From the NCBI GenBank assembly GCA_019695115.1, contig JAIBAP010000002.1, positions 1 through 64,000 of the forward strand: a stretch of 64,000 nucleotides of DNA, read 5' to 3'. Below are positions 15,243-61,993 of this stretch, in pieces (the first letter of the stretch is position 1; every line of letters starts with the position of its first letter). The stretch is from Caldilineales bacterium. Lineage in GTDB: Bacteria; Chloroflexota; Anaerolineae; J102. The position numbers and the translations under genes were made by a program. The notes below the pieces were generated by a model. The model searched no databases, had not been told where the DNA came from, and worked only from the letters and a program-made list of their open reading frames with translations.

Positions 15243-18200
15243 CTATCTCTCTGCTCTCCATAACCTAGGCAAGAACACCTTTTCCTGCACTGGCCAGGCC
15301 ACCACGATCTGACCTTCGCTCCAGACACCGTCCAGGCTGCCATCCTCGCCCATCTCCACCCCCTGCATTTGCGCCCATCCCGCCCCCGACCCGGACTGGC
15401 CTAGCAGCGCCGCCCCGCCAACCATCGACGCCTTCTCCCGCTCATGGTCGGGCGCTACCCAAATCTGACCCTGCGGCGCCGGACCGACGCCTGTATAGCG
15501 CACCGCATAGACCTGGCCGCCCGGCAGCCAGCCCTGCGGCAAGCCATCCGCCAGCGCCCCCAACACGCTCACGACCACGAAGGTGTCGTTTGGAACCTGC
15601 CCCGCTCGCAAGTGGAGCCAGAAGCGGCCATCGGGGGAATAGACATCGGCCGGGGCCAGCGCCGATAGCCCGCGAGCAGTGAAGGCTGCGCTCAGGTGCG
15701 GACCGGATGGCTGGCCATCGCTCGTGAGAATGGCGACCTTGCCGGTGGCGCGGAAACGGAGATCGATCGGCAACACTGCGCTTTGCACATCGCCTTCTCG
15801 GTGCAGACGGCTGCGGTCTGGTTCTTCTCCGGCCAACGCGTACTCGACCCATCCTTCCTCCTGGCCCGAGCCTGTTACCTCGACGCGTATTCCCTGCCCG
15901 TCCGTTTGCGGAGTCAACGTCATCCGCGCCGCTGTTCGAACATGGGCAGCCAACGCCGGGCGGGGATTGACCAGCGTCAGGTTGATGTCGCCTGTGGTCG
16001 AGATGGCGATCGTGGCCTCGACGCGGCGGTCGAGCGTGTGCAGAATCAAGGCCGATCCCTCGGCGACGCCGAAGAGATCGATGGAGTTGTTAACGGTCAG
16101 GCCCTGCTCGATATTCACCGTTCGCCCGTCTTGCTGCCCTACAGCGACTGTCCGCAATTGATACGACTGATTCGAATCGGTTGCGCCTTGCCAGTTGATG
16201 TACAGGGTTCGCAGCGGCGGGCCGTCTGGCGACGCCTGCCTGTCGATGACCGGCCACGGCCAGACGCGTTTCACCGGCCAGGTGTACGGCTCCGGTTGTG
16301 GCAGCACCTGGCCGCGACCGGACGGACGCCAGAGACAGTAGGAGACGTTGGGCGGAACAGGGACGCCGGGGCGGCAATCGAGCGAGGGCGCGCCATTGGC
16401 GGCGTGGAAACGGCGCAATACCGTGTCCCAATCCGATTCACCGCCGGTGCGATCCCAGTGCTCGGTGCGGGTGCAGGCTTCGCTCCACAATTCAGGTCGG
16501 AACTTGTCGGCTAACTCACTGGTATCGTATTGGTAATCCATGATCGAGGCTCGATTTGGCTCTGGTGGAGGATTGCCGGCCTGTTCCAGGTGGGTGCAGA
16601 AGGCATCTTGCGGTCCCTGACCGGCAGGGAAGCGAATATACTCATCGTAGAGGCCGAGCAGATAATGCCCCATCTCGTGGACAAGGGTGCGGTAGCCCGT
16701 GGCGCACGACCAGACGCCGGCAGGACAGTCATCGCCGTCGCCGCCTCGCCGGGAGCTATCGCCGTTCCAGAGCGGGCCAAAGCGGGCATCGAAGTCGCCC
16801 CGCGCGCCGTCTACGCCCGCCACTGCTGCACGAGGACGGATCTGGTTATTGGCGGCAATGCGAAGGTCGGCGTCGGCCCAATGCTCGCCGCGGTCGAAGA
16901 TCGTGATTCGACCTAGCGCCATCTGGCCGTCGGTCACATCGTAGAGATAAGCCGAGGCCCGGCGCAGAGCGAGTTGCAAGTCGTCCAGGTAGGTTTGGTC
17001 GGCGTCCCATTCGATAGAGACGGTCAGGTTGAACATGATGAGAGGGCTGTCGCGATAGACGACCAGGCGCCGCTCGCCGGGAGCAGAGTCATCGATCAGA
17101 CCGGGGTGCAGGGGGCCGAGGTCGGGACTTTGGCTGAGATTGGTGAGGAAGACCTGGAAGGCCCAGGGGTCGGCGGTCGCATCGCCATCCAGGTCACGGT
17201 CATGGGCGCTGCGCGCCGTGTGGCCAGAGATTGAGGCTGCGCTGAGTGGCTGTGGCGCCAGCGCGATCAACTCATCCCCTGCCGCCAACGGTGGCAAATC
17301 GAGCACGCCATCGCTGCGTGTCCGCCCCATAAACTCGCCGTTGCGGTAGACACGTGCCCCAGATTGTGGCGTTCCCCGTTCGTCCATCACCCGTGCATGA
17401 TAGTCGCCGGGCGTGGCGGTGGGAGTGGGGGTCGGCGTGGGGGTTGGTTGGATGACGACGTCGGTGACGCAGCGATAGGCGACCTGCTGATTGATATTCC
17501 AGATCACATCTAGGCAAGCGAAGTTCAACCTACTTTGCGCCAACCCAGACTGTTCAGCGCGAGTTCCCAGCAACTGCCGTGGATCCAGCCAGCCACGTTG
17601 AGCGTCACGCGGCTGTAAGCAGACGTGTGTGATATGGTTGGCGTCCAGGCAGTTCAGCACTACTACCAAATTCCCGACCGCGTCCGATTCCAATGCCGGA
17701 GAGCCGGCGCCAGTCTCACTGATGATGACACCTTGGAAGAGCGGTTCCGGCTCGCTCCACAGGCCCGTGGTCTCGCGGCGGCGATAGAATACGTCGCCTT
17801 GTGTCTGACCTGAGGCCAGGTAGGTGAGATGATAACGCCCGCGGTCATCGACTGCTCCTGCCGTCGAACCTGACCAGCGATCGTCGTTGGTCAGGCGTTC
17901 GGGCGCGGCCCAGGTGGCGCCGCCATCGCTCGAGTGCAGATAGCGCACCTCGACCCAGGTTGATGCGCAGCAAGGGTCGTTGTCATTGTAGGCGATGTGG
18001 ATGTCCCCATTTGGCCCTACATCGATATCAGGATGCCAACCGCCGCTGGCCAACTTGCGTTCTGGCCCCCAACTGCCACTCTGCGACCGCACCCGATACC
18101 AGATATCCCTAATGCTCCAGACAATATGAACGCGGTCATCCGACCCTACCGCCAGGTTGTAAGCATAGCCCCCGTTGGCGACTCGTTCGGGGGCCGACCA

Positions 18201-19235
18201 CTGGCCATCGTGGTAGCGAAAATAGAGTGCGCCGTTGATGCCGCCTGTCCCTGCCGTCGTACTGAGGTCTTGACCAATCAGCAAGTGCAAGGTGCTCCCA
18301 TCGGGATCGACGACTAAAGAGCCGCCGCCGCCTGGTTCGTCAAAGGTGTAGAAAGGGCTACGCGTCTCTATGGGCGGTTGCCAATGGGCGCCGTTGTCGT
18401 CACTCCAGGCATAGAAAAGTGAGCGATGGCCGAGATCGAAGTACACCAGATGGAGCCGTCCATTCGGCGCTCGCGCCAACGTGTGTTGTTTACTATAACC
18501 GATGATATGGCCCGGCCACAGTGCCTCAGGAACGACTTCAAGGGTAGGAGTGGCAGTTGGGCTAGGCGTGGGTGTAGGTGTAACTGTGGGCGATCCGGTT
18601 GGCGTAGCTGCGTTCGTTTCGACCCAAGCTCGTATCATGTTGTAGCCCACTGCGGACGGCGTCTGCCAGAAAGCATAGTGCTCGGACCACGTTTGGCCAG
18701 CGTTGCGGCTGTAGAAGTTCTTGCGTTCGGCGATATTACTGGTATCGTCGGTCAGGAATGATGGTGTGCTGCCCATGACTCCGCCTAAGTACTCGATGCC
18801 GGCGACGAATGTCTGAGGTTCCATCAGTAGCACTGGCTGGAGTAAGGGTAGATCGACAAATTGCGGATAGAAGGTGGTAATTGTCATGGGTACAGAGGCA
18901 GCCACGAGTTCCTGGGGATAGCCGTTAGCGTTCACGGCATACACGACGGCACGGACATAGACGGAACTGTTTGCCCCTGAAAAATTGCGATAGAACTGCG
19001 CCTGTACCTTCTGTACGCGCAACGGGTATTGATTGTCATTTGCGCGCAGCGCCGATGCCACCACATAATCATCAGCCATACTTGCCGAATAGCCTTCAGC
19101 TGTGCCGCTGTCATTTTGCAGTAGCACTGTCCCCTGCGGTTCAGCCGTTGCGCTCATCCCAAGAGCCGACAGCGCGACCAAAGCGACTATGGCGACGATG
19201 AACGCCGGCAGTGTGCGACCAAGACTATGACTCAT
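15243..19235 (-). CDS. Giant secreted protein with BNR-like propeller and HExxH metalloprotease-like domain
   Basis: This 1330-aa exported protein has a signal peptide (about 1-32) and an N-terminal beta domain (about 33-210). A Thr-Pro linker at about 212-237 leads to Asp-box/BNR-like propeller repeats (about 238-595; HLVYFDLGHRSLFYAWSDD, GGATWAAPERLTNDDRW), and a second linker is at about 600-613. Next come a carboxypeptidase-regulatory-like beta domain and then a zinc peptidase region with HEMGHYLLGLYDEY (H853, E854, H857, D864, E865). That spacing equals the HExxHxxxGxxDE motif of CLCA-type metalloproteases. The end is VFLPRLWRAER, the tail motif seen in other secreted proteins here. GGAGG 7 bases upstream supports the ATG. 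Extracellular protein degradation is inferred. Confidence 0.8.
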   Translation of the reverse strand: MSHSLGRTLPAFIVAIVALVALSALGMSATAEPQGTVLLQNDSGTAEGYSASMADDYVVASALRANDNQYPLRVQKVQAQFYRNFSGANSSVYVRAVVYAVNANGYPQELVAASVPMTITTFYPQFVDLPLLQPVLLMEPQTFVAGIEYLGGVMGSTPSFLTDDTSNIAERKNFYSRNAGQTWSEHYAFWQTPSAVGYNMIRAWVETNAATPTGSPTVTPTPTPSPTATPTLEVVPEALWPGHIIGYSKQHTLARAPNGRLHLVYFDLGHRSLFYAWSDDNGAHWQPPIETRSPFYTFDEPGGGGSLVVDPDGSTLHLLIGQDLSTTAGTGGINGALYFRYHDGQWSAPERVANGGYAYNLAVGSDDRVHIVWSIRDIWYRVRSQSGSWGPERKLASGGWHPDIDVGPNGDIHIAYNDNDPCCASTWVEVRYLHSSDGGATWAAPERLTNDDRWSGSTAGAVDDRGRYHLTYLASGQTQGDVFYRRRETTGLWSEPEPLFQGVIISETGAGSPALESDAVGNLVVVLNCLDANHITHVCLQPRDAQRGWLDPRQLLGTRAEQSGLAQSRLNFACLDVIWNINQQVAYRCVTDVVIQPTPTPTPTPTATPGDYHARVMDERGTPQSGARVYRNGEFMGRTRSDGVLDLPPLAAGDELIALAPQPLSAASISGHTARSAHDRDLDGDATADPWAFQVFLTNLSQSPDLGPLHPGLIDDSAPGERRLVVYRDSPLIMFNLTVSIEWDADQTYLDDLQLALRRASAYLYDVTDGQMALGRITIFDRGEHWADADLRIAANNQIRPRAAVAGVDGARGDFDARFGPLWNGDSSRRGGDGDDCPAGVWSCATGYRTLVHEMGHYLLGLYDEYIRFPAGQGPQDAFCTHLEQAGNPPPEPNRASIMDYQYDTSELADKFRPELWSEACTRTEHWDRTGGESDWDTVLRRFHAANGAPSLDCRPGVPVPPNVSYCLWRPSGRGQVLPQPEPYTWPVKRVWPWPVIDRQASPDGPPLRTLYINWQGATDSNQSYQLRTVAVGQQDGRTVNIEQGLTVNNSIDLFGVAEGSALILHTLDRRVEATIAISTTGDINLTLVNPRPALAAHVRTAARMTLTPQTDGQGIRVEVTGSGQEEGWVEYALAGEEPDRSRLHREGDVQSAVLPIDLRFRATGKVAILTSDGQPSGPHLSAAFTARGLSALAPADVYSPDGRFWLHLRAGQVPNDTFVVVSVLGALADGLPQGWLPGGQVYAVRYTGVGPAPQGQIWVAPDHEREKASMVGGAALLGQSGSGAGWAQMQGVEMGEDGSLDGVWSEGQIVVAWPVQEKVFLPRLWRAER

Positions 19236-19697
19236 GAAACGCCTCCATCGGCCTATCTGTTCTGAACGCCAGCGAAGATTTCGGCAAACAAAAATGCCCG
19301 CGTAGATAATTCCGCAGGCGAGAATGCGTTTGGGCCCCGTTTTGCCATTTTGGGCAGTCGTTACCGACTACAATCCTAAGTCTACCACAAACGTGCGGCA
19401 AATTACAAATCAACCGTGGTGCGAGATCGGGCCTGATTCCGCGCCGCCTCCACGGCGCCGGTCGCTCTCGCCAACGCCCGGCGCCATGGGGCAGTTGAGG
19501 GCGCTCGCCCAAGATCGATTTCGATCTTGCTCGCCATGGCGAACGCCTCATGGGAATGGTCTCCGCCGCATCAAATCGGCGTAACCACTATGATGATATG
19601 ACCCCGACTACATCGCGAATCTGACAACATTCACATCCCCTGACAGGTGTCGGGCTTAGCGCCGCCTGGCGCAACCTGTCACGGGGTGGGATGGTAG
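19236..19697. other. Intergenic region with stem-loops
   Basis: No gene is seen in this 462-bp stretch. It holds the promoter side of the giant gene, with a short dyad AGTCGTTACCGACT near 19357. Further along are CAAGATCG/CGATCTTG around an ATTT loop (19510-19529) and a 12-bp palindrome TCGCCATGGCGA (19531-19542). The terminator of the next minus-strand gene closes the region. The centre is rich in GGCG/CGCC and may be a decayed repeat. Confidence 0.4.
19641..19681 (-). terminator. Two-tier hairpin after the 19698 gene
   Basis: An outer stem TGACAGGT/ACCTGTCA encloses an inner stem GCGCC/GGCGC with a GCCT loop, 17 bp past the stop of the minus-strand gene. No U-tract follows. It is probably a transcript end. 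Confidence 0.45.
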
Positions 19698-20576
19698 TCA
19701 CTCTCCCCCTTTGTTCACCCATGGCAGCCAGAGTCTCTTGGGCTGCGGCGCAGCCAACACATAAGCCGTTAACTGGCTGATTGGCGCCCCCACCCAGTTT
19801 CGTCGCGTGCTGACCTCGCTTTTGTCCAGTGGCGCCCACACGCCTTGAGGGGGATTCCAGGCAAGCATCTTCAGAGTCGCTTCGTCATAACCGTAACCGC
19901 GCAGGATGTCGGGATCGTAGTAGATCGTTAGCGAGGCGTTTAGTTGGCCGTTGGGTCCATCCGATTCGACCACATAGACCGAGCCTGGAACCTGCCACCA
20001 GCCGGGCGGCAGGGGCGCCGGGCCTTTGGGTGGTATCAGCAAAACAACCTTATGGTCGGCATCATCATCGAACGGATCGGGCTCGAAACGTACGACAGCG
20101 GATACCAGCGCCAGGTCGGGCGCGTCATTGGTGGAGATGTTCTCGAAATCGTACATGACGCGCACCTCTTCGGTCGGTCGCAGTTGACTCGAAGCAGGCA
20201 AAAGCCTGAGACAGGCTTCGGCGGTGGGGCAGTGTTCGAACAGGGCATGCTCGGCTACCCGGCCTTCGTAAGCGCCCGTTTCGTCACTATACTCGAGCTG
20301 TGTGTGCGACCAGTCGTGCGAGGTTGAGCCGAACATGGCCGAAATCGCCACGAACGGTCTACCGATGGCGCTCGCACTGACATAGGCATCGTCGTTGTTG
20401 GCGGCTGGCACAATGGTTACGTAGGGCGGCCAGGTCTGGGCGGTCACATCAGGGGCTGATGAAGTAGCAGCTTCATCCCATCTCAGTAGCAATCCTGCCA
20501 GCAGCCCCACCGTCAGCACTGCCATCCGTCCAAGTCGTGTAAAATAGCTTTTGGATTGGCGATTTTGCTGGTTCAT
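19698..20576 (-). CDS. Secreted protein with C-terminal WLP tail, unknown
   Basis: This 292-aa protein has an N-terminal signal or anchor (RLGRMAVLTVGLLAGLLLRW). The rest is beta-rich without a recognised domain; SLTIYYDPDILRGYGYDEAT and WNPPQGVWAPL resemble beta-sandwich segments of secreted Chloroflexota proteins. It ends KRLWLPWVNKGGE, a variant of the F/W-L-P tail. The ATG at 20576 is favoured over a frame 9 codons longer because AAGGA stands 8 bases upstream and it leaves room for the divergent gene. Only 20 bp separate it from the start of the CHAT protein, so the promoters of the divergent pair must overlap the coding regions. Confidence 0.65.
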   Translation of the reverse strand: MNQQNRQSKSYFTRLGRMAVLTVGLLAGLLLRWDEAATSSAPDVTAQTWPPYVTIVPAANNDDAYVSASAIGRPFVAISAMFGSTSHDWSHTQLEYSDETGAYEGRVAEHALFEHCPTAEACLRLLPASSQLRPTEEVRVMYDFENISTNDAPDLALVSAVVRFEPDPFDDDADHKVVLLIPPKGPAPLPPGWWQVPGSVYVVESDGPNGQLNASLTIYYDPDILRGYGYDEATLKMLAWNPPQGVWAPLDKSEVSTRRNWVGAPISQLTAYVLAAPQPKRLWLPWVNKGGE

Positions 20577-20596
20577 ACTCTGTTTCCTTATGTTCG

Positions 20597-23026
20597 ATGA
20601 CAAAGATTCATAACCGAGATCACGCCGAAATCGAAGCGACGCTGATGAAGGCGGCGGTAGAAGACGACGAGGCCGTCATTTCTGCGGCCAAGATGCTTTT
20701 CTTCGACGCGCTCTCTAATCGTGATGACGGTCGAGCCAGGGCGGTTTCTGACACGCTGATACGGTTCTTGCTGCCCAAACGCACAGCGCGCGCCTGGTCT
20801 GCCTATTTTCGCGCCGTTTTGGCCTCGGTGCAGCAACGATGGGATCGGGCCGAAAGCTATGCGTTGCAGGTATTGCGTCTGGCCGACGCCGCTGAACTCC
20901 GCGGCCGCGCCTGCAACGAGCTGGGTATTCTTTACGACCATCTGGGGCGTTGGCAGGATGCCATCGGTTTCTATCAGACCGGCCTGGCCGCCTTTGCCGT
21001 GGCCGGCGATACCGAGTACATTGCCAAACTGAACAAGAATCTGGGTACGGCTTTGGTGCGCGGGGTCGAGGCGGGCGTCTTTGCTGCCGATCACCTGCAC
21101 GAAGCCGAAATCAGAATTCGCCAGGCGCTTGACTATTTTGCCCGACAGGGTCCACCTCGACAACAAGCTTCGGCCTGGAATGAGCTGGGCACGGTCTACA
21201 AGGCCCAGAGTCGATGGCAGGATGCAGCGGCCTGCTACGAGCATTATCGAGTCTACTTTGCCGATCGAGGCGAGGCGCTGGGCCAGGGACAGGCTCTGAA
21301 CAACCGCGGAGAAGTGCTGCGCTTGACCGGGCGGCTGGCTGAAGCGGAAGCCAATTTTCTGGCTGCGCTCGACCTGACTTCTGGTGACATTTGGGAAGAA
21401 ATCGATGTTTTGATCAACTTAGCCCACACTCAAGCCGACCTGGGTCGTGATCGTGAAGCGGCGCTGACGACCGATCGGGCGCTGGCCAGGGTCGAGTCCT
21501 TGCGCGCTCGCCTGCAGACTGCCTCTACTCGCACCGACTTCTTCGCCGTGCAACAACGCTCCTATGCCTGGCGCGCGCATCTGGCTTTCAAATCGAAGCA
21601 ACTCGATCAAGTTTTTTCCCTCTCCGAACGCGCTAAATCCCGCACCTTCGGCGATTTGTTGGCCGGACAGCGCCTGCAGCCGCACGGTGATGTCCCACTG
21701 CGTTGGCAGCGTGAAGAAACCAACCTGCGTCGCCGTCTCGATGATCTATTGGCCCACCCGTTGGCCGAATCCGACAGGCATGCTGAGTTGGTCGCTACGA
21801 TCGAAGCGCGCTGGCTGGAATTACGCCAACGCATCGCCCATCGCGACGCCGAATTTGGCTCGCTCGGCTTCGCGGCGCCGCTCACAGCCGAGGCCGTACA
21901 AGCCCGCTTGCCTTCTTATGCCGCCCTACTCAGCTACTTTGAAAGCGAAGGTGAGTTGCTGGCCATCCTCGTTCAACCCGACAGTATCCGTGTTTTTCCG
22001 CTCGGAGTGTCGCTAGCGGCTATCGGTGAAGCCTCTTTCGATGCCAAAGGTCGCCCGCGCGGGCTGTTGGCCCAGGGCGACCGTTTGGGCCGGCCCTGGG
22101 TGTTAGGACAACTCGGCCGGGTCTTGCTCGGACCGCTGACAGCGCATCTCGAGGAGATCGACCATGTCTGCATCGTCCCGCAGGGTGCACTTCACCACCT
22201 TCCCTTTGCAGCCTTGCGATTGGACGAATCCGGCCGGGCTTTGCGCGAAATCGTTGGGGCAGTTTCGCAAGCGCCTAGCGCCACCGTCTGGCTGGACTAT
22301 TGCCAGAGCCGTACGGTGGCTCCAGCCGACGCTATGGTGCTTGGCTTCGATGGCAAGACCCTGACGCATGCTGAAGCCGAAGCGCATGCGATCGGTAAAC
22401 TGCTTGGAGTGGACGCACTGATGGGCATCGCTGCCACCCGGCCGGCGTTGGCAAGCAGAGGAAGCAGCGCCCGTTTGCTTCATCTTGCTTGCCCCGGCCT
22501 CTACCGCCCCGACCAACCTCTGCGTTCCGGCATCCATCTGGCTGATGGCTTCCTGGATGTCACTGCAACTTGTCGTCGTTTGCGTTTGCAAGCCGAACTT
22601 GTGACCCTCAGCGGCTGCGAAACTGGCCTAGGATATATCCAAAGCGGGGACGAGATCGCTGGCCTGGTGCGAGCCTGGCTCTACGCTGGAGCGGCCGGCG
22701 TGCTGGTCAGTCTGTGGACGGTGAACGATCTCTCGACCCGTTTGTTGATGCAGGAATTCTATCCTCGGCTTGCCGAAGTCGGCCCGGCGCGGGCGTTGAT
22801 CCTGGCCCAAGTCACTCTTGCCACGATGGCTACCAGACCCCTGACCGAACGGCTGTTGGGCGAGGGCATCTCAGCGCTGGAGATCGAGTCTTATCTGGGT
22901 CAACTCAGCCGACTGTGGGATTCGCTTGACCCCGATCATCCGCTGGCTCACCCTTATTTTTGGGCCGGTTTCGTTCTCCAGGGCGGAAGATTTGCTGGAA
23001 GTGGGTCGCCTCTGGGAGGCGTCTAG
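20597..23026 (+). CDS. TPR-CHAT protein with substituted catalytic His
   Basis: This 809-aa cytoplasmic protein has TPR repeats at about 30-290 (RACNELGILYDHLGRWQDAIGFY, SAWNELGTVYKAQSRWQDAAACY, NNRGEVLRLTGRLAEAEANF). A helical linker follows, and then a C-terminal CHAT domain, a caspase-like fold (VPQGALHHLPFAALRL, VTLSGCETGLGYIQSGDE, AGAAGVLVSLWTVND, HPYFWAGFVLQG). The catalytic Cys is C674. The position where CHAT proteases have the His of the A-T-H-G motif reads HLACPGLY (P633), so the dyad appears broken. It is tail-to-tail with the anti-sigma gene and shares a CTAG that stops both. No Shine-Dalgarno is visible at the ATG. A signalling or scaffold role is inferred. Confidence 0.88.
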   Translation: MTKIHNRDHAEIEATLMKAAVEDDEAVISAAKMLFFDALSNRDDGRARAVSDTLIRFLLPKRTARAWSAYFRAVLASVQQRWDRAESYALQVLRLADAAELRGRACNELGILYDHLGRWQDAIGFYQTGLAAFAVAGDTEYIAKLNKNLGTALVRGVEAGVFAADHLHEAEIRIRQALDYFARQGPPRQQASAWNELGTVYKAQSRWQDAAACYEHYRVYFADRGEALGQGQALNNRGEVLRLTGRLAEAEANFLAALDLTSGDIWEEIDVLINLAHTQADLGRDREAALTTDRALARVESLRARLQTASTRTDFFAVQQRSYAWRAHLAFKSKQLDQVFSLSERAKSRTFGDLLAGQRLQPHGDVPLRWQREETNLRRRLDDLLAHPLAESDRHAELVATIEARWLELRQRIAHRDAEFGSLGFAAPLTAEAVQARLPSYAALLSYFESEGELLAILVQPDSIRVFPLGVSLAAIGEASFDAKGRPRGLLAQGDRLGRPWVLGQLGRVLLGPLTAHLEEIDHVCIVPQGALHHLPFAALRLDESGRALREIVGAVSQAPSATVWLDYCQSRTVAPADAMVLGFDGKTLTHAEAEAHAIGKLLGVDALMGIAATRPALASRGSSARLLHLACPGLYRPDQPLRSGIHLADGFLDVTATCRRLRLQAELVTLSGCETGLGYIQSGDEIAGLVRAWLYAGAAGVLVSLWTVNDLSTRLLMQEFYPRLAEVGPARALILAQVTLATMATRPLTERLLGEGISALEIESYLGQLSRLWDSLDPDHPLAHPYFWAGFVLQGGRFAGSGSPLGGV

Positions 23027-23730
23027 GACGGCGGCAACACCAGTGCCGTTAGCGCGGGGAGGTCGGCGCGAGAAATACCATCGAAAGCGACGATGCCTGA
23101 TCGCCCGCTGATCTGCTCAGTCTGGCGTTTGCCATCGTCCAGAACGACGCGAACGCCACTGAAATCGGGCCAGCGCGAGGGAATGCTGATCTCGAACTCC
23201 AGGCGCACGCGGTCGGCATCAAGGGGATAAGGGATTGCCGTGACCGTCGCCTCGAAATCGTACAGGTCGTCGCAATGCAGAACGACCATGGCCGGCGTTT
23301 CCTCGCTGCGATGGGCCAACGCCGGGCCGGACACAGTCCGCAAGTCTTGGAGAGCAAAGAAAACGACCTGAGTTTGTTCATGGATGCCCTGACTCAGCCC
23401 GGCTAGATAATCGCGCCCGCGCTGCCAGCGTCCCAATCGAGCGGCGGCTTGGGGGGCCTGTGTTTGTAATCGCCGCCATTCGGCGTAGTTCGGTGCGGCC
23501 GGTCGCAGATCAGCCAACACAGCCGCAGTCAGCAGATCGGGATCGTCGGCCAGCGCACGCGCCAGATCGCCAAAACGTTGCCAGCAATCAGTGCATGCCA
23601 ACAAATGTGCACGAGCCTGCTCCAATCTATCGGCCGGGATTACCCCGCCTAAACTAAAATGCAAAAGCAATTGGATGGTCTCGTCGTGGAGACCGTCAGG
23701 TGTGGTCATTTCATCACTCGCCTTACCCAT
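23023..23730 (-). CDS. Zinc-binding anti-sigma factor-like protein
   Basis: This 235-aa protein starts MGKASDEMTTPDGL. Its N-terminal part has the ZAS motif H-x3-C-x2-C (ARAHLLACTDCWQRF, about 65-72), typical of zinc anti-sigma factors. There is no obvious transmembrane helix. The C-terminal half is beta-rich (AMVVLHCDDLYDFEATVTAI, RLEFEISIPSRWPDFSGVRV) and of unknown function. The start overlaps the sigma-factor stop (ATGGGTAA), so it is translationally coupled; GGAG about 10 bases upstream favours 23730 over the ATG at 23709. Such coupling is the usual arrangement of a sigma/anti-sigma pair. It may be cytosolic and sense redox or zinc state, which is inference. Confidence 0.8.
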   Translation of the reverse strand: MGKASDEMTTPDGLHDETIQLLLHFSLGGVIPADRLEQARAHLLACTDCWQRFGDLARALADDPDLLTAAVLADLRPAAPNYAEWRRLQTQAPQAAARLGRWQRGRDYLAGLSQGIHEQTQVVFFALQDLRTVSGPALAHRSEETPAMVVLHCDDLYDFEATVTAIPYPLDADRVRLEFEISIPSRWPDFSGVRVVLDDGKRQTEQISGRSGIVAFDGISRADLPALTALVLPPS

Positions 23731-24586
23731 ACTGATCAGACTCCTGTCGGCGACCTTTTCTGACAGGGTGCGCCCGGCCCGTAAACCATTCCGGGCCAAG
23801 CAGTTGGATCATCATTTCCTTCAATTCGGGATTCTTGGCTAGACGCTGTACGATGCGCTGGCGAATCTTGGGAATACTTGCCGGCGCCAGACCTACCAAC
23901 CTGGCAATATCGGCATCATTCCAGGGTCGTGGTTGCCTTGTCTGTTCATCGAGGTATTCGGTCTCGATAAAACTATAATGCAGGATCGAGAGATCGCGGT
24001 TGGTCAGTAGCCGACTGAAAGTGGTTTCGAGAATGAGATGGCGTTCATCCTGAAGGATGGTCTCGTCCGGCTGTTCTGACAATGGCGCCGGTAGAGATTG
24101 GGTGACATCTTCTTCCTCTGTATTCTCTGCTGTTGATGGTGGGATGACAATCGCACGGCGCTTACGATCACTATGCCAGTCGTTGCAAACGTTGGCGGCG
24201 ATCCGATACAACCAGGCGTTCAAAGAACCCCTAAAGGTGTATTGCGAAAAAGCCTTCAACGCCTGTGCGATCGCTTCATTGGCAACATCTTCGCACTGAG
24301 TGAAGTCGACGCCTCTTTTCACGGCAAGTTTGACAAACCCTCGCCGATAGGATTCCCAGTAGTCATCACCCTCGCGATAACGCCGCTGACTCATGATCTC
24401 GTAGAGCGGACCATCCTGATAGTAGTTCCGCACAACTGTCTCGATCTCGGCGTCCGTCGCCCCCGCGGAGAGATAACGCCAAGTGGCGCGGGCTAACTCG
24501 GTCTGATCGACTGCGGACAGAGGCCAGTTTTCGCTTACGGTCAATCTGACTACCGATGCAAGGCAGCGGTTCTCGAGATCGTTCAT
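23723..24586 (-). CDS. ECF-like RNA polymerase sigma factor
   Basis: This 287-aa sigma-70 family protein has an N-terminal extension of about 85 residues. The region 2 helix is CEDVANEAIAQALKAFSQYTFRGSLNAWLYRIAANVCND (core recognition and -10 binding), followed by a Pro/Glu-rich linker. Region 4 is a helix-turn-helix (NDADIARLVGLAPASIPKIRQRIVQRL). At 287 aa it is longer than classical ECF factors (~180 aa). It is co-transcribed with the anti-sigma gene, and the CHAT gene lies tail-to-tail beyond. The targets cannot be read from the window. Confidence 0.88.
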   Translation of the reverse strand: MNDLENRCLASVVRLTVSENWPLSAVDQTELARATWRYLSAGATDAEIETVVRNYYQDGPLYEIMSQRRYREGDDYWESYRRGFVKLAVKRGVDFTQCEDVANEAIAQALKAFSQYTFRGSLNAWLYRIAANVCNDWHSDRKRRAIVIPPSTAENTEEEDVTQSLPAPLSEQPDETILQDERHLILETTFSRLLTNRDLSILHYSFIETEYLDEQTRQPRPWNDADIARLVGLAPASIPKIRQRIVQRLAKNPELKEMMIQLLGPEWFTGRAHPVRKGRRQESDQYG

Positions 24587-24944
24587 GGTTGTCGGCTATT
24601 CACAAGTCGCATTCCCGTCCAAGCGAGAGGCATGAGGTCGATGCATGCCGGCGCCAGAGTGGGGATTGTGCTCAGTCCAGGTTGGAACTGGCCGAGATTC
24701 TACCACAGTGTTCTTTCCTGGCTTCACTCTGTCATTGTTTCCTCTTTGCATTGCCCTGGCTTCCTGGTTGCTTTGGCCGATTTTGACGCTTGCTTGCAGA
24801 CCGTCGATACGCCTGCTGCATGACTGACAAAAGGCCACTCGCGCCCTTGTTTGCCAACACTAACAAAGGCGAGTAGAATCCGGCTTTGCTTCGCCACGAA
24901 CCATGGGGCGTTCGTGATCATAATCGCCGGAGGCATCTCTATCT
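24587..24944. other. Divergent intergenic region
   Basis: This 358-bp region lies between the sigma factor (minus) and the secreted protein (plus). No convincing gene is seen. It must hold the sigma operon promoter on the minus strand, where I found no clear consensus, and the plus-strand promoter at 24851-24879. Confidence 0.5.
24851..24879 (+). promoter_or_regulatory. Candidate sigma-A promoter
   Basis: TTGCCA (24851-24856) and TAGAAT (24874-24879) are separated by exactly 17 bp, about 65 bp upstream of the start codon of the secreted protein. This is the best -35/-10 pair on the plus strand here and would drive the two-gene secreted-protein operon. Confidence 0.5.
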
Positions 24945-27900
24945 ATGCAGAAACTCATCCATCTCGCCGTGCTGGCGTCGATCCTGACGCTCCTGATCCC
25001 TTTCCCATCCCTTGCCGCTGACCCCTGCCAGATGCTCTTGCCCGTTGGCGTGTGGGAAGGAACCACACACGCCGATCTCACCGCCATCCAAAAGATGGCG
25101 AATGGGACCGTCATCCTCGACATGCACATCCATGATACAGGTACGATCACGCTCACCATCGGCTGTACTATCACCGGCGGCGATTTCGTCTTTCAAAGCT
25201 CGCGCACGATGAAACGGCCGATCATCAACTGGGAGATCTCCTGTGACGCCAACGTGCATTTCACCCAGCCTGCGGGCAACGTCGTCGTGGGGGCCAATGG
25301 CAAGCCGCGCATCGACGTGCGCTGGGGTCACAACGTCTATGTGGGCGCGGGAACCTGCCCGGATACCGCCTTCCCCCCCGCCACCTTCCAATTCCACACC
25401 TCCGGCCCGCCCGTGAATCGGGCCATCAGCGGCGATTACGACATCGTCTACGATGACCCCAACCGCTCCGACCTGGACGAGATGGCCCAGATCTATCGCG
25501 ATGCCGGCATGGAAGTGACGTTCACCCGCGGCTACACCCTCACGCGCAAGCCGCAACCGCAGGTCGAGGGCCTGACAGCGCGGCTGCGGCAATACTTCCT
25601 GCGCAGCATCCCCGTCACCAACCGCTACACCGCCGCCATCGACTGGGACGGCGCCGATCCCGGCTCCGCCCGCTTCATTCTCGATGGCGAGCAGCCGCAA
25701 GACATGACCGTGAACGGCAATACCGCCACCTACGACCTGGCCGTGGGGTCGATCCAGCGCACCGGCGACATCCCCATCAGCATCGAAGCCGACATCGAGG
25801 GCCGCATCGACCGCGCCGATGACCTCGGCCCGTTGACCATTGTCCCCCTCCCCAACTGGGCAGGCCCGTTTAACTTCCAGGCCAGGCCGCCCGCAGGCGA
25901 CCACGTTCTGTACAAAGGCGAGTATCGCCTACCCGACCAGCCCCTCTCCGCCAACATCACGCTGCCCAGCTGGCTGCCCTATGTGGGTGGGACGTGGGGG
26001 CTGCTGCCCACCCAACTCAAGGTCGGATTGTCGGCCAACTCTTCGGGCGCCACCGAGCGCGACGGCCTGGCCGCGCAGGGCGGGTTCGGCCTGGGCAACC
26101 GGCGTTTCACTCTGGCTGCCAGCGGCAATCTCTACGGCACGCTGCAGCACGACGCCCTCGTCTTCCAGACTGACCCGCTGACTCTCTCCACCTACGGCGT
26201 CCTTTGGCAGGATCGGTGGGGCCTGATCTCACTGATCCCCGGCGCCCAGTCCTTGTTCAGTGTCCCGGTCTTGGGCGACTTGTTGCAGGCGATCGACAAC
26301 ACCGCCGGGATCACGGCCGACATCCACGGTGGGATGACGGGGACGGGGCGGCTGGGCGTGATCGGCGACAAGATGGCCCTGACCGAGGGCCGCTTCGATG
26401 CCACTCTGGGCGCGCAAGCCACGGCCAATCTCAGCCTGCTGGTGGCCTATGTGTATCTGACCGGCGGCGGCGATGGCTACCTGGCCATGCAGATCGTCCC
26501 CTCGCCCAAAGCCACCCGTTGCGAGGTGCGGCTGTACTTCCAGATGCGGGCCGGCGCCTTCGGTTATAGCACCACGCTCATCGACGCCCGCCACACCTTC
26601 GTTGCCTGCACCTCCGCTTCCGGCCAGGTGTTCCTCTACCCGCTGGCTTCATCCCCATCCTCGCCCACCCTGCGCTACGGCGGCCCGCCCCTGGCCGAGG
26701 CCGAACGCATCCTTCAGACAGGGATAACGACCAACGGCCTGACCGAGACCATCCTGGCCGAAAACGCCAACCTCCAGGCCCAGCCCCAGCTTGCGACCGG
26801 GCCGAACGGCCGCCGGGCCTTTGTCTGGAACAGCATGGGCAACGCCGGCGCTGCCGATGTCGTCAGCCTGCGCCTGTTCGACGGCGCCGCCTGGGGCAAC
26901 CCCATCGTCCTCAGCCAGGCCAACAAGCCGGCCTTCAACCCCACCGCCGCCTTCGCCGCCAATGGCAACCTCATCGTTGCCTGGACCGAAGCCCAGCTTC
27001 CTCCCAACCCCAACCAATTGACCGAGGCCTTCGTGCGCTCGTTCGAGATCGCCTGGGCCGAGATCGACGGCGCCGGGGCAATCGTCCGCCGCGGGCAATT
27101 GGCCGCGGACAACAACATGGATTTCGGCCCACGCCTGGCCGCCGCCCCCGACGGTTCGGTCTGGCTGGCCTGGCAAACCAGCCCCGGCCTCAGCCTGACT
27201 GGCACGGCCGCCAAGCCTAACCGCCTGCAAGCCGCGCGTTGGTCGGGTTCCGGCTGGGCGGCGGCCGAGACCGTTTCGCAAGACCTGACCGGCGTCCTCT
27301 TCTGGCGACTGGCCGCCGCCGACGCCAATCGCGTCTGGCTGGTCGCCGATCAGGATACCGACGGCAACCTGGGCACGGCCAACGACCGCGAAATCTATGT
27401 CTACAAGCGCACGGCTTCCGGCTGGGCGGCGCCGCAGCGGCTGACCAACGACGCCCTGCCCGACACCGCCCCCCTCCTGGCCCTCACGCCCGCCGGCCTG
27501 CCCGTCCTCGCCTGGTCGCACAATGGCGACACGGTCAAAGGACTGATCGGCGATCCCGCCGCCACGACGCCGCAGGTCTGGTTCGATCATGAAACCAACA
27601 TCGGCCCATCGCTGGGAACCGGCGAGTTGTTGGCGGCAGCCGACGGCAAACTGAGCCTGATCTGGCCGGACAACACCGAGATGGGCCAGGATGTCTGGCT
27701 GGCGCGCTTCAACCCCACCCACCAAACCTGGAGCCAGCCCGCTCCCCTATTCCACGGCGCCGAACAGCGCAGCTCGCTCTCGGCCCGGCTGCTGCCCGGC
27801 GGCGACATCTTGCTTGCCTCGACCGTCGCCCAGGTGGGCCAGCAGACGGTCACATTCGACGGCGGCGTTCAGGTCCCCGTGCCCTCGGTGGCCGAGACCG

Positions 27901-27989
27901 CCCGGCTCACGGTGGCGACTATCCCTGCCGGATACACCCCTGCCCCCATGCACCCGCTTCTCTTCCTGCCCCGCGTGGCGAGCCGTTAG
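24945..27989 (+). CDS. Giant secreted protein with C-terminal propeller-like repeats and FLP tail
   Basis: This 1014-aa protein has a clean signal peptide (MQKLIHLAVLASILTLLIPFPSLAA, cleavage about 25). The first half (about 26-590) is beta-rich with no recognised domain; an all-beta region around residues 320-500 carries Gly-rich segments. The second half (about 600-990) has repeated AWT/AWQ/AWS motifs (RRAFVWNSMGNAG, GNLIVAWTEAQLP, GSVWLAWQTSPGL, GLPVLAWSHNGD), typical of a sialidase-like beta-propeller. It ends HPLLFLPRVASR, the tail motif shared with other secreted proteins. It lies 5 bp upstream of the subtilisin gene in the same orientation, so the two are almost certainly co-transcribed. 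A substrate-binding or protease-partner role is inferred. Confidence 0.7.
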   Translation: MQKLIHLAVLASILTLLIPFPSLAADPCQMLLPVGVWEGTTHADLTAIQKMANGTVILDMHIHDTGTITLTIGCTITGGDFVFQSSRTMKRPIINWEISCDANVHFTQPAGNVVVGANGKPRIDVRWGHNVYVGAGTCPDTAFPPATFQFHTSGPPVNRAISGDYDIVYDDPNRSDLDEMAQIYRDAGMEVTFTRGYTLTRKPQPQVEGLTARLRQYFLRSIPVTNRYTAAIDWDGADPGSARFILDGEQPQDMTVNGNTATYDLAVGSIQRTGDIPISIEADIEGRIDRADDLGPLTIVPLPNWAGPFNFQARPPAGDHVLYKGEYRLPDQPLSANITLPSWLPYVGGTWGLLPTQLKVGLSANSSGATERDGLAAQGGFGLGNRRFTLAASGNLYGTLQHDALVFQTDPLTLSTYGVLWQDRWGLISLIPGAQSLFSVPVLGDLLQAIDNTAGITADIHGGMTGTGRLGVIGDKMALTEGRFDATLGAQATANLSLLVAYVYLTGGGDGYLAMQIVPSPKATRCEVRLYFQMRAGAFGYSTTLIDARHTFVACTSASGQVFLYPLASSPSSPTLRYGGPPLAEAERILQTGITTNGLTETILAENANLQAQPQLATGPNGRRAFVWNSMGNAGAADVVSLRLFDGAAWGNPIVLSQANKPAFNPTAAFAANGNLIVAWTEAQLPPNPNQLTEAFVRSFEIAWAEIDGAGAIVRRGQLAADNNMDFGPRLAAAPDGSVWLAWQTSPGLSLTGTAAKPNRLQAARWSGSGWAAAETVSQDLTGVLFWRLAAADANRVWLVADQDTDGNLGTANDREIYVYKRTASGWAAPQRLTNDALPDTAPLLALTPAGLPVLAWSHNGDTVKGLIGDPAATTPQVWFDHETNIGPSLGTGELLAAADGKLSLIWPDNTEMGQDVWLARFNPTHQTWSQPAPLFHGAEQRSSLSARLLPGGDILLASTVAQVGQQTVTFDGGVQVPVPSVAETARLTVATIPAGYTPAPMHPLLFLPRVASR

Positions 27990-27994
27990 GGGGT

Positions 27995-30900
27995 ATGATG
28001 AAGATCACCTGCTCCCTGATCATCGCCGTTGCCTTGCTACTGTTAGCCAACTCGCTGGCGACGGCGGCCGGCGTCGATAGTCCACCCTTCCCCGACAACC
28101 TCCAGACGGCGCTCACCGCCCCGGCCCGCTCTCTCTCTATCGTGCAGCTCGCGGCCCCGCCCCTGGCTCTGTACGCGGGCAGCCTGCCCGGTCTGGCCCC
28201 CACCAACCCACAGACCCTGGGCGAGACGGAATTGGCCGTCGATGCGCCTGCCAGTCGCGACTACCTGGGTTATCTGGCCGGGCAACGGGCCGCAGTCGTG
28301 GCCCAGGCCGAGGCCCTCATCGGCCGCCCGCTGGAGGTGCGCTTCAGCTACAGCTTTGCCTTTGCCGGTTTCGCCGCCGAGATGACGCCCGCCGAAGCCG
28401 ACCGCATCGCCGCCCTGCCCGGTGTGCGCCAGGTGACGCCAGACGCCAGGCGCCAATTGCACACCGATGTCGGGCCGGGCTGGATCGGCGCGCCGGGCGT
28501 GTGGGATGGGTCGGCCACAGGGTCGGCCAGCCGGGGCGAGGGTGTGATCATCGGCGTCATCGACACCGGTTTGAATCTCGACCACCCCTCCTTCGCCGAC
28601 CCCGGCCCCATCGACGGCTACAACTACGCCAATCCCTTCGGCGCCGGGGTTTACAAGGGTCTGTGCGCCACCAACCCCGCCCGATACCGCTGCAACGACA
28701 AGCTGCTTGGGTACTACATCTTCACCGGCGAGACGACCGACGACACCGATGGCCACGGCAGCCACACCGCCAGTACAGCCGGCGGCAATCGCGTCGCCGC
28801 TCTGCTGGATGTTTCGTCGACCAATGCCTTTTCTTTTGCGCCCACGATTTCGGGTGTGGCCCCGCACGCCCATCTGATCGCCTATGACGCCTGCATCGAT
28901 GGCAGCGGCTGCCCGCTGACGGCTTTGACCGCAGCCATCGACCAGGCCGTGGCCGACGGCGTCGATGTCATCAACTATTCCATCGGCGGGCCGAGCAGCA
29001 ACCCCTGGATCGACATCGACGCGCAGGCGTTCTTGGGCGCAGTGGCGGCAGGGGTCCTCCCGGCGGTCTCCGCGGGCAACAGCGGGCCGGGCGCCAGCAC
29101 AGTTGGCTCGCCCGGCGATGCGCCCTGGGTGCTCACCGTGGCCGCCAGCACCCACACCCGCTCATCGGAGGTCGCGCTCATCAACCTCAGCGGTGGGGCC
29201 AGCGCCCCGCCCGCGAATTTGCATGGCCAGGCGTTGACCGCAGCCTATGGCCCGGCCCCCATCGTCTATGCCGGAAAGTTCGGCGACCCCAAATGCCAGA
29301 CGCCCTTCCCCGCCAACACCTGGACCCACGGCGAGATCGTCGTCTGCGATCGCGGCGGCATCGCCCGTGTGGCCAAAGGAACGGCCGTCAAGAAGGGCGG
29401 GGCCAGAGGGATGGTCTTGGTCAACACGGAGCCGGGCGAATCGCTGGTGGCCGACCCTCACATTATCCCTGCCGTCCACCTGAGCAAAGCGGACGGCGAC
29501 GCCCTTAAGGCCTGGCTGGCCACGGGGAGTGGGCACACGGCTACTATTCAGGCGACGCAAATCCACATCGACCCCGCACACGCCGACGCAATGGCCGATT
29601 TCAGCTCGCGCGGGCCGCTGACGAACGCAGCCAGGGATGTGATCAAGCCCGATGTCACGGCGCCGGGCGTGGACGTTCTGGCCGCCTTCCGCAGCGGCTC
29701 TGGCCCGGCCGGCGACGCCGAGCCGTGGATGGACGAATTCAACTTCCTCAGCGGCACCTCGATGTCCAGCCCGCATACGGCCGGGGCAGCTGCCCTGCTG
29801 CACTCGCTCCACCCCGTTTGGACGCCGTCCGAAGTCAAGTCGGCGCTGATGACGACGGCCGTGGTCGCCGGGGTGCGCAAAGAGGATGGCAGCACCCCGG
29901 CCGAGCCTTTCGATAGGGGTGGAGGGCGGATCGACGTCAGCCGGGCCGCCAACGCCGGCATGGTGCTCGATGTCACCCCGGCCCAGTTCAACGCCGCCGA
30001 TCCTGCCTTCGACGGGGAACCAAAGACGCTGAATCTGCCCAGCTTGGCCGACAGCGCCTGCCCGGCCATCTGCTCGTGGACGCGCACCGTCCGCAACCCC
30101 ACCAACCGGGCCCTTACCTTCGCCGCCAGCTACGCCGGCGCCGGCAGCGCCACGATCACACCGTCGCTCCTGAGTCTGGGGCCAGGGCAGACGGCGCCCT
30201 TTCAGATCGCGCTCGATGTTTCGGCGGCGACCAAAGGCGTTTGGGCTTTCGGCCTCCTGATCTGGCATGAACAGGGGAATCATGCCCCCGACGCCCATTT
30301 CCCCGTAGCCGTGATCCCGGTGACGCCGGTGGCTCACGTGCGCGCTTTCCCAACATCGTTGCGCAGCGACCAGGCGCCGGGGAGGAAGGTGACGCGCACG
30401 CTCAGCATCGCCAACACTGGCGCCGCCGCCCTCAACTGGCAAATCAAGGAAGACGCATCCGGCCATGCGCTCGCTTTGGACACGTCGCTTGCGGATCAGG
30501 GGTCCGCTCTCGAACCCGCTGCCACCCCCCTTGTCCTCAAAGTGGATGATGGTAAGTCGGAATGGGCGCTGGGACTGCCGGGTGGCGGCCAATTCCTGTG
30601 GTTCAACCGCTTCACACCCGACCCGGCCCGCTTCCCGATCTCGTTGGAGAAAGTGCAGGTAATGTTCGAGTCGCAGGTCGATGTCGGCGCGCTGGTCGAT
30701 ATCTATGTGTACGAGGACAAAGATGGCGACGGCAACCCCGGCACCGGCGCGGTGCACCGGGCGTCGCTCAAGAATCAGGCCGTGCAGTTCGCCGATGGCA
30801 GAACCTTCTCCGAGTTCAGCTTCCCCACGCCGGTGCGATTGAACGGGCCGGGCGACATCCTCATCGGCGTCGTCAACCGCACGGCCGGCGTCGCCGTTGG

Positions 30901-32269
30901 CAAGGAGGCCGCCTCTATCGACGCCAATTCGATCAAGCGCCGCCGCTCCTGGTTTGGCAGCTACGGCGGCCCGCCCCCCGACCCGCCCGTCCTGCCCGCG
31001 CCGCAGAACTGGGGCCTCATCGACGACCTCGACCTCGGCCAGCTTTTCCAGGATGGGAACTGGTTGATCCGCGGCCTGGGCGCCGGACGCGGCCCGTGCG
31101 ACAGTCCCGCCGACGTCCCCTGGTTGAAGGATATTGCGCCTGCAAGCGGCAGCACGCCGGTCGCAGGCAGTGCATCGGTAGAGATCACGCTCGACGCCAC
31201 CGGTCTGGCCGTGGGCGATTACAAGGCATCGATCTGCATCGACAGCAATGATCCCGCCGCGCCGCGCCTGGTCGTCCCGGTGGAGATGAACGTGGCAACC
31301 ACTCCCGCTGTTCAGGTGCTTCCGGCCAGCCTCCAAACCCGGCTTGCGCCCGGCAAACAAACTGTGCAACCGCTCACCATCCGCAATATCGGCGGGCAGA
31401 ACCTGACCTGGGCGGTGTCCGAGACGAATTCGTTCGGCCAGGCGGCTGTTGGGCCAGCTTCCAGCGCCTCGGCGATCGTGCTCCACGACCAGACCGACCA
31501 GCCCGGCAGCAATATCGTCCTTTCGCAGTTCTTCCCCGATCTCCAGAAGCGTGTGCTGGGGGCCGACGATTTCGCCATTCCGGCAGCCGATGGCGGCTGG
31601 AGGGTCGAACGAGTAGTCGCTCAGGGGATGTACAGCCCTGACGATGGCCCGGCGCCGAACTTCGATGTCGTCATCTATGCCAACCGTGGCGGCCTGCCGG
31701 GAACCGAAGTCTACCGGGCGGCTGGCCTTGCGGCTGCCAGCGATCAGGGCGGGGCCGTCGCCTTCAACCTGCCGCAACCGGCCTTGCTGCAACCGGGCGT
31801 CTATTGGCTATCTATTGTGGCCAATATGACCTACAACCCCGGCTCGCAACTTTGGGCCTGGCTGACGCGGGATGTGCAGAACGGCTTCCCCTATGCCTGG
31901 GAGGACCCGGACGGCTTGTTGCAGACACCGTGCACCACCTGGAAGCCGGGCGCCAGTGTGTGCAATATTGGCGGCGGCGTCGACCCCGATCTGCTCTTCC
32001 GCCTGGAGGGTGTGAAGGGCGCGCCCGTCTGTAACAACACCGGCGACATCGGTTGGCTGAGCCTGACGCCAGCGAACGGCGCGGCGGCGCCCGGCGCCAG
32101 CAGCACCGTGCAAGCCACTTTCGATTCCACCGGCCTGACCCCCGGCCTCTACCTCAGGTCGCTGTGCATCAGCAACAACTCCCCCTCCACCCCGTTCGTC
32201 ATCGTCCCCGTGCAGATGGAGGTGACAAGCCCGCCACCGAAGGTCTTCTTGCCGCTGCTGGCGCGCTAG
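27995..32269 (+). CDS. Secreted subtilisin-family (S8) serine protease
   Basis: This 1424-aa extracellular protease has a signal peptide (about 1-26) and an I9-type propeptide (about 60-150). The S8 catalytic triad is intact: D190 in VIDTGLNLDHP, H254 in GHGSHTAS and S589 in SGTSMSSPH, with oxyanion N362 in VSAGNSGPG. A PA domain is inserted at about 415-515 (HGEIVVCDRGGIARVAKG). C-terminal fibronectin/Ig-like and choice-of-anchor-like beta domains follow, with two repeats ending in an ASPH-like DPAAPRLVVPVEMN / NNSPSTPFVIVPVQME pattern. It ends PPPKVFLPLLAR, the tail motif. AGGGGG precedes the ATG. Its TAG stop abuts the galK stop. Confidence 0.93.
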   Translation: MMKITCSLIIAVALLLLANSLATAAGVDSPPFPDNLQTALTAPARSLSIVQLAAPPLALYAGSLPGLAPTNPQTLGETELAVDAPASRDYLGYLAGQRAAVVAQAEALIGRPLEVRFSYSFAFAGFAAEMTPAEADRIAALPGVRQVTPDARRQLHTDVGPGWIGAPGVWDGSATGSASRGEGVIIGVIDTGLNLDHPSFADPGPIDGYNYANPFGAGVYKGLCATNPARYRCNDKLLGYYIFTGETTDDTDGHGSHTASTAGGNRVAALLDVSSTNAFSFAPTISGVAPHAHLIAYDACIDGSGCPLTALTAAIDQAVADGVDVINYSIGGPSSNPWIDIDAQAFLGAVAAGVLPAVSAGNSGPGASTVGSPGDAPWVLTVAASTHTRSSEVALINLSGGASAPPANLHGQALTAAYGPAPIVYAGKFGDPKCQTPFPANTWTHGEIVVCDRGGIARVAKGTAVKKGGARGMVLVNTEPGESLVADPHIIPAVHLSKADGDALKAWLATGSGHTATIQATQIHIDPAHADAMADFSSRGPLTNAARDVIKPDVTAPGVDVLAAFRSGSGPAGDAEPWMDEFNFLSGTSMSSPHTAGAAALLHSLHPVWTPSEVKSALMTTAVVAGVRKEDGSTPAEPFDRGGGRIDVSRAANAGMVLDVTPAQFNAADPAFDGEPKTLNLPSLADSACPAICSWTRTVRNPTNRALTFAASYAGAGSATITPSLLSLGPGQTAPFQIALDVSAATKGVWAFGLLIWHEQGNHAPDAHFPVAVIPVTPVAHVRAFPTSLRSDQAPGRKVTRTLSIANTGAAALNWQIKEDASGHALALDTSLADQGSALEPAATPLVLKVDDGKSEWALGLPGGGQFLWFNRFTPDPARFPISLEKVQVMFESQVDVGALVDIYVYEDKDGDGNPGTGAVHRASLKNQAVQFADGRTFSEFSFPTPVRLNGPGDILIGVVNRTAGVAVGKEAASIDANSIKRRRSWFGSYGGPPPDPPVLPAPQNWGLIDDLDLGQLFQDGNWLIRGLGAGRGPCDSPADVPWLKDIAPASGSTPVAGSASVEITLDATGLAVGDYKASICIDSNDPAAPRLVVPVEMNVATTPAVQVLPASLQTRLAPGKQTVQPLTIRNIGGQNLTWAVSETNSFGQAAVGPASSASAIVLHDQTDQPGSNIVLSQFFPDLQKRVLGADDFAIPAADGGWRVERVVAQGMYSPDDGPAPNFDVVIYANRGGLPGTEVYRAAGLAAASDQGGAVAFNLPQPALLQPGVYWLSIVANMTYNPGSQLWAWLTRDVQNGFPYAWEDPDGLLQTPCTTWKPGASVCNIGGGVDPDLLFRLEGVKGAPVCNNTGDIGWLSLTPANGAAAPGASSTVQATFDSTGLTPGLYLRSLCISNNSPSTPFVIVPVQMEVTSPPPKVFLPLLAR

Positions 32270-46088: not shown

Positions 46089-46101
46089 ATACTCGGGCGA
46101 T

Positions 46102-61985: not shown

Positions 61986-61993
61986 GGGCGCAC

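What the first reader, a model, noticed from the sequence alone, without database searches (positions are those of the whole stretch)
15243..32269. Shared C-terminal F/W-L-P tail on secreted proteins
At least four exported proteins end with a short hydrophobic block of the form (F/W)-L-P-(R/L/W) followed by a few basic or small residues: VFLPRLWRAER at 15243, LWLPWVNKGGE at 19698, LFLPRVASR at 27989, and VFLPLLAR at 32269. A looser version ([11 protein letters not shown]) ends the GH protein at 60240. The amidase at 11335 has IFLPFL internally, just after its N-terminal module. The proteins are otherwise unrelated (propeller, subtilisin, beta-rich, hydrolase). Such a tail on unrelated secreted proteins is what a sorting, anchoring or export signal would look like. 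I know of no named system with this tail, but similar endings appear in other Chloroflexota proteins from memory.
Basis: partly seen in the sequence, partly recalled or inferred. Interest (0 to 1): 0.78.

Follow-up and report, generated by a model that had tools for sequence, protein, structure and literature searches.

The report
Short surface-sorting tag on exported proteins
Many unrelated exported proteins of this Chloroflexota bacterium end in the same seven-residue tag ([YFW]-L-P-hydrophobic-hydrophobic-x-Arg/Lys), which looks like a surface-sorting label; NCBI has already named it the YLP-box, but nobody has shown what reads it, and a PorU-like protease that occurs almost only in tag-rich genomes is a new and testable candidate.

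Summary
The tails are real. In 1.25 Mb of the window's genome, 15 of 71 exported proteins without another anchor end in [YFW]-L-P-x-h-x-[RK] within 0-5 residues of the stop. This compares with 1 of 35 lipoproteins, 0 of 26 TM-anchored exported proteins and no genuine cytosolic protein (shuffling predicts 0.1). A scan of 84,980 species genomes found the strict form (YLPLV-h-R-stop) only in Chloroflexota; four other hits look like chance. It caps proteins with no detectable homology and needs no transmembrane helix. It is not unnamed: NCBIfam holds two models for it ('YLP-box putative sorting motif'), which miss the window's F/W variants. I found no paper on it. Two observations appear new. (1) The same box sometimes sits just behind the signal peptide at the mature N-terminus. 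(2) A full-length PorU-like C25 cysteine peptidase is present in 12 of 13 genomes with at least 5 boxes and 0 of 46 with none. Sortase does not track the box, and exosortase is absent from most tagged genomes. The C25 enzymes often carry the tail themselves, and several tailed genomes lack them, so 'processing enzyme' versus 'fellow client' is open. Best reading: a short surface sorting or retention tag, with PorU-like C25 as the leading candidate reader.

The parts
15246..15278 (-). C-terminal box VFLPRLWRAER of the BNR/propeller protein (gene 15243-19235)
   Evidence: position-specific enrichment
15243..19235 (-). exported 1330-aa protein, signal peptide, BNR_2 domain, carries the box
19701..19733 (-). 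C-terminal box LWLPWVNKGGE (gene 19698-20603)
19698..20603 (-). small exported protein, no Pfam family, carries the box
27960..27986 (+). C-terminal box LFLPRVASR (gene 24945-27989)
24945..27989 (+). exported 1014-aa beta-rich protein, no Pfam family, carries the box
32243..32266 (+). C-terminal box VFLPLLAR (gene 27995-32269); ortholog in a same-family genome (L217) ends LYLPVLLR after a diverged linker
27995..32269 (+). exported subtilase (S8, PA, I9, BACON-like domains), carries the box about 22 residues behind its last domain
11953..11979 (-). internal box-like IFLPFLYQR (residues 110-118) between the N-terminal module and the Amidase_6 domain of 11335-12306; possibly the N-terminal type of box
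   Evidence: compare
60243..60299 (-). degenerate tail [19 protein letters not shown] behind a Pro/Thr linker (gene 60240-62051); weak fit

Best explanation
The tail is a divergent form of the YLP-box, a very short linear sorting or retention tag on Sec-exported Chloroflexota proteins that have neither a lipid anchor nor a membrane anchor. Shown: the motif, its terminal position, its restriction to exported proteins, its near-exclusion from lipoproteins and TM-anchored proteins, its attachment to unrelated domains, and its restriction to part of one phylum. Inferred: after translocation the box is recognised outside the cytoplasmic membrane and keeps or attaches its carrier at the cell surface. 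Because the box also occurs at the mature N-terminus of some proteins, recognition of the peptide itself, rather than removal of a C-terminal piece, is probably the essential step.
For: Enrichment and position: (15/71 unanchored exported vs 1/35 lipoproteins and 0/26 TM-anchored). Unrelated carriers: 57 clusters; over 56 proteins only L and P of the box are invariant; 76 Pfam families; no family in more than 4 of 56. Choice-of-anchor Q, J and T families, which I know as families that end in other sorting signals elsewhere, are among the carriers. No hydrophobic helix before the tail in 71 of 74. Phylum restriction. Orthologous subtilase keeps the box while the linker diverges. PorU-like C25: 12/13 genomes with at least 5 boxes vs 0/46 with none, p = 1e-11; at family level (at least 2 boxes vs none) 9/13 vs 0/41, p = 1.3e-7. 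Full-length PorU match by profile and fold; His/Cys dyad kept in 17 of 18.
Against: No localisation or processing data exist for any carrier. C25 proteins often carry a (degenerate) box themselves, so they could be clients. Genomes G034, G213, G142, G147 and G205 have genuine-looking boxes but no detected C25. 80 of 96 boxes end exactly at the R/K, leaving no obvious leaving group for a cut behind the box. Species are not independent data points.
Confidence: 0.62

Rival explanations
1. The box is a docking peptide bound without cleavage by a surface receptor or envelope polymer. The C25 peptidases are just frequent clients of the same anchoring system.
For: The box occurs at C-terminus, N-terminus and occasionally between linkers, which suits binding better than cleavage. 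C25 proteins carry the box. Several boxed genomes lack C25. 80 of 96 boxes end at the final R/K.
Against: No receptor candidate was found; proteins next to boxed genes show no shared dedicated partner. A mere client would not be expected in 12 of 13 box-rich genomes.
Confidence: 0.28
2. The tail is a C-terminal cap that protects exported proteins from tail-specific or other extracellular proteases, without any sorting role.
For: It sits at the very end and terminates in a basic residue; exported proteins meet proteases (general knowledge).
Against: It avoids lipoproteins and TM-anchored exported proteins, and it also occurs N-terminally.
Confidence: 0.06
3. It is a substrate signal for a classical sortase (LPXTG type) or an exosortase.
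For: The 'LP' and the final basic residue resemble a collapsed tripartite signal; the own genome has one sortase and one exosortase.
Against: No TM helix. Sortase occurs in 17/18 boxed and 15/18 unboxed genomes and is missing from boxed G165. Exosortase passes its cut-off in only 3 of 18 boxed genomes.
Confidence: 0.03
4. It is the last beta-strand of a shared C-terminal domain, or chance.
For: The hydrophobic pattern is strand-like; many carriers are beta-rich.
Against: 57 non-homologous clusters; tails follow Pro/Thr-rich linkers in L077, L078 and L118; shuffles give about 0.1 hits. In the C25 model the last residues have pLDDT 49.
Confidence: 0.01

Closest known systems
NCBIfam NF050076 (sort_motif_YLP) and NF053834 (ultrashort_CTERM), 'YLP-box putative sorting motif-containing protein'
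   Same: Same R-h-Y-L-P-L-V-h-R consensus at the extreme C-terminus of secreted proteins; hits many relatives' tails
   Different: The models miss the window's own F/W-type tails and all but one or two in this genome. The NF053834 name (ultrashort_CTERM) implies a C-terminal signal, whereas N-terminal boxes exist. No partner is named in the entries seen, and no paper was found
T9SS C-terminal domain plus PorU sortase (Bacteroidota)
   Same: Many unrelated exported cargos; the C25 enzyme is PorU-like over most of its length
   Different: The T9SS signal is a conserved C-terminal beta-sandwich domain (PMC4804311), not about 7 residues. PorU attaches A-LPS (PMC8545088), and Chloroflexota lack LPS genes and BamA (PMC7332563). 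Other T9SS parts were not tested here
MYXO-CTERM/myxosortase, GlyGly-CTERM/rhombosortase, PEP-CTERM/exosortase, LPXTG/sortase
   Same: C-terminal sorting signals on many unrelated proteins, one processing enzyme
   Different: All have motif, TM helix and basic cluster (PMC11980579); here there is no TM helix, and sortase and exosortase do not track the box

Membership tests
NCBIfam YLP-box (NF050076 / NF053834) | score above curated cut-off (15 / 10 bits) | tested here: not met
   No hit for the window proteins; in the whole genome one real-looking site (C39) plus a short ORF
NCBIfam YLP-box (NF050076 / NF053834) | terminal [YFW]LP-h-h-x-[RK] on exported proteins of Chloroflexota | tested here: met
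   the ortholog of the window subtilase has the canonical LYLPVLLR
Sortase (LPXTG) substrate | LPXTG-like motif, TM helix, basic cluster | tested here: not met
   No 19-aa hydrophobic stretch in the last 60 aa of 71/74 carriers; no TG after LP
PEP-CTERM / exosortase substrate | TM helix in the signal and exosortase in the genome | tested here: not met
   the own genome has an exosortase, but most box-rich genomes do not
T9SS CTD cargo | conserved C-terminal beta-sandwich domain | tested here: not met
   Conserved part is only about 9 residues
T9SS CTD cargo | other T9SS machinery (PorV, PorLM, Sov) | not tested
PorU (NF033707) for the associated C25 enzymes | score above equivalog cut-off (420 bits) | tested here: not met
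   169 bits, E = 9e-50 for the Roseiflexus-type protein; all 18 match
PorU (NF033707) for the associated C25 enzymes | PorU-like architecture with His/Cys dyad | tested here: met
   Foldseek top hit 6za2 over 835 columns, E = 7e-24, TM-score 0.50 by query length; dyad in 17/18
PorU (NF033707) for the associated C25 enzymes | sortase (cleave and ligate) activity on the box | not testable with these tools
   needs biochemistry

The most novel reading that the evidence does not exclude
Chloroflexota run a type-IX-like attachment step without type IX secretion: PorU-like C25 peptidases recognise a 7-residue box that may sit at either end of an exported protein and fix its carrier to an LPS-free envelope.
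Probability: 0.25. Interest if true: 0.85.

Novelty: new variant of a known kind. Interest (0 to 1): 0.62.

Why it matters
About a fifth of the unanchored exported proteins of this genome carry the tag, so it probably governs a large share of the surface proteome of a widespread phylum whose envelope is debated (monoderm, or diderm-like without LPS; PMC7332563, PMC13319060). A named but unexplained motif now has a candidate enzyme, clear exceptions to test it against, and a positional variant that constrains the chemistry. If PorU-like enzymes act outside Bacteroidota on such a short signal, sortase-type attachment would be more widespread and simpler than thought, and useful as a compact surface-display tag.

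Tried and rejected
Classical sortase and exosortase as general partners. Conserved neighbours of boxed genes: only scattered families, no dedicated partner. Dependence on a second membrane-like layer: a Roseiflexus-type genome (G163) is box-rich although R. castenholzii shows no such layer, while Chloroflexus and Viridilinea do (PMC7332563). One YLP hit in genome G155 turned out to be a Nudix-like cytosolic frame, so some NCBIfam-based counts include chance hits. Four non-Chloroflexota hits of the species scan look like chance: three short frames and a cytochrome-P450-like C-terminus. Model of the subtilase C-terminus with two sequences was useless (pLDDT 37). Linker-versus-tail identity over motif-fetched pairs is biased by how the pairs were found and is not used as evidence.

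Full report
OBSERVATION. Translation of the window confirms the four tails exactly where stated, at the last 8-11 residues, plus the internal IFLPFLYQR of the amidase and a degenerate tail at 60240. I could not load the whole genome, so I assembled 1.25 Mb of it and called genes with a codon-frame model. Of 994 complete genes, the strict motif [YFW][LF]P.[LIVMF].{0,1}[RKN] falls in the last 22 residues of 14/105 exported, 1/231 membrane and 1/658 other proteins (p = 9.5e-13); shuffles give 0.09. After splitting the exported set, the tail is on 15/71 unanchored proteins, 1/35 lipoproteins and 0/26 TM-anchored ones. The single 'membrane' hit is a 4,005-aa exported protein, and the single 'cytosolic' hit has an N-terminal hydrophobic stretch. 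These classes come from simple rules and are approximate.

WHAT THE MOTIF LOOKS LIKE. Over 96 tail proteins the consensus is R-h-Y-L-P-L-V-h-R-COOH: Y 81, F 10, W 5; L 95 of 96; P in all (required by the search pattern); R or K 92; the chain ends there in 80. These numbers are shaped by the search patterns used to fetch many of the proteins, but the unbiased G000 set shows the same form. The 96 proteins fall into 57 clusters without detectable homology. In an alignment of 56 carriers only L and P of the box are invariant. The carriers hit 76 Pfam families: laminin-G, DUF11, subtilase, PD40, PKD, Calx-beta, beta-helix and others. Choice-of-anchor Q, J and T families are among them; from general knowledge these names mark families that end in different sorting signals in different bacteria. 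Tails often follow Pro/Thr-rich linkers, and no transmembrane stretch precedes them in 71 of 74. An ortholog of the window subtilase, found by its body and not by its tail, ends LYLPVLLR where the window protein ends VFLPLLAR, behind a linker that has diverged.

WHERE IT OCCURS. A scan of 84,980 species genomes for YLPLV-h-R-stop gave 48 stretches: 44 in records labelled as Chloroflexota groups (Chloroflexales, Herpetosiphonaceae, Anaerolineae, Thermoflexales and others) and four elsewhere that look like chance. Inside the phylum it is patchy: rich in families f1, f4, f5, f9, f22, f23, f33 and f60, absent from most others. Contig lengths suggest (from memory) that G163 is Roseiflexus sp. RS-1, G115 Chloroflexus aurantiacus J-10-fl and G107 Herpetosiphon aurantiacus; a Roseiflexus locus matches G163 at about 90%.

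ALREADY NAMED. NCBIfam release 20.0 (June 2026) holds NF050076 'sort_motif_YLP' and NF053834 'ultrashort_CTERM', both described as YLP-box putative sorting motif. I found no paper on it. The window's proteins match neither model, and in the whole genome only one credible site passes, so this lineage uses a divergent form that current annotation misses.

NEW OBSERVATION 1: POSITION. In genome G205, and singly in G034, G213 and G266, the box RVYLPLVxR sits 34-69 residues from the start of a signal-peptide protein, just inside the mature N-terminus. A few boxes lie between two linkers or domains. Over everything fetched, 103 boxes are C-terminal, 7 N-terminal behind a signal peptide and 11 elsewhere; some of the last group are chance (membrane or antisense frames). 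Recognition therefore probably does not require a free C-terminus. The amidase box in the window may be of this N-terminal type.

NEW OBSERVATION 2: A CANDIDATE READER. Sortase is in 17/18 boxed and 15/18 unboxed genomes and missing from boxed G165. Exosortase passes its cut-off in only 3 of 18 boxed genomes. Peptidase C25 behaves differently: present in 15/18 boxed and 0/18 unboxed genomes. On 78 other genomes scored with NF050076, C25 is in 12/13 with at least 5 boxes, 15/21 with at least 2, and 0/46 with none (p = 1.6e-10 for at least 2; family level 9/13 vs 0/41, p = 1.3e-7). The unboxed set includes genomes up to 7.7 Mb, so size does not explain it. The enzymes match the T9SS sortase PorU over most of their length and are closest to PorU among solved structures by sequence (6za2) and by fold (E = 7e-24 over 835 columns). 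The His/Cys pair is kept in 17 of 18. Most end in a degenerate box themselves (VTLPLVQR, LDVPLVQR, LYLPITRR), with low model confidence at that tail.

LIMITS. Being tailed, C25 proteins could be clients rather than readers. G034, G213, G142, G147 and G205 have real-looking boxes without detectable C25. In T9SS, PorU cuts off a C-terminal beta-sandwich domain (PMC4804311) and attaches A-LPS (PMC8545088); here most boxes end at the last residue and LPS genes are absent (PMC7332563), so chemistry and target would have to differ. The correlation was found while looking through families, and related genomes are not independent.

MECHANISM. I commit to a surface sorting or retention tag acting after Sec export (0.62). 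A non-enzymatic docking receptor is the main rival (0.28). The box cannot serve only a second membrane-like layer: a Roseiflexus-type genome is box-rich, while R. castenholzii shows no such layer (PMC7332563).

Noticed in passing
window 40604-42109 and 46051-46827 (- strand): A 597-bp stretch of a glycosyltransferase-like membrane-protein gene (apparently a polyprenyl glycosylphosphotransferase) is duplicated at 97% identity and joined to an unrelated, metallo-beta-lactamase-like sequence, giving a chimeric reading frame.
   Followed up: partly
window 20597-23026 (+): A TPR protein with an apparent CHAT-like (caspase-like) C-terminal domain, read by eye, lies among the tailed genes.
   Followed up: no
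G000:C3:7082-7819: The window's genome has a clear exosortase, rare among the Chloroflexota genomes tested; its own substrates were not looked for.
   Followed up: no
G000:C6:10001 (locus L044): An exported protein with a tail-like TYFPLIASGDAG is followed by a GRVA tandem expansion at its very end.
   Followed up: no
G000:C5:36970 (loci L040-L041): A box (WMYLPLILR) lies between two Pro/Thr linkers, joining a beta-helix-like part to a hydrolase-like part, as if a tailed protein had been fused to another.
   Followed up: partly
G058:C1:97099-116301 and G000:C10:42796-54813: Giant exported proteins (6,411 and 4,005 aa) end in the box. A 6,596-aa DUF11 grappling-hook protein is known from Litorilinea (PMC13319060); whether it is related or has the box was not checked.
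   Followed up: no
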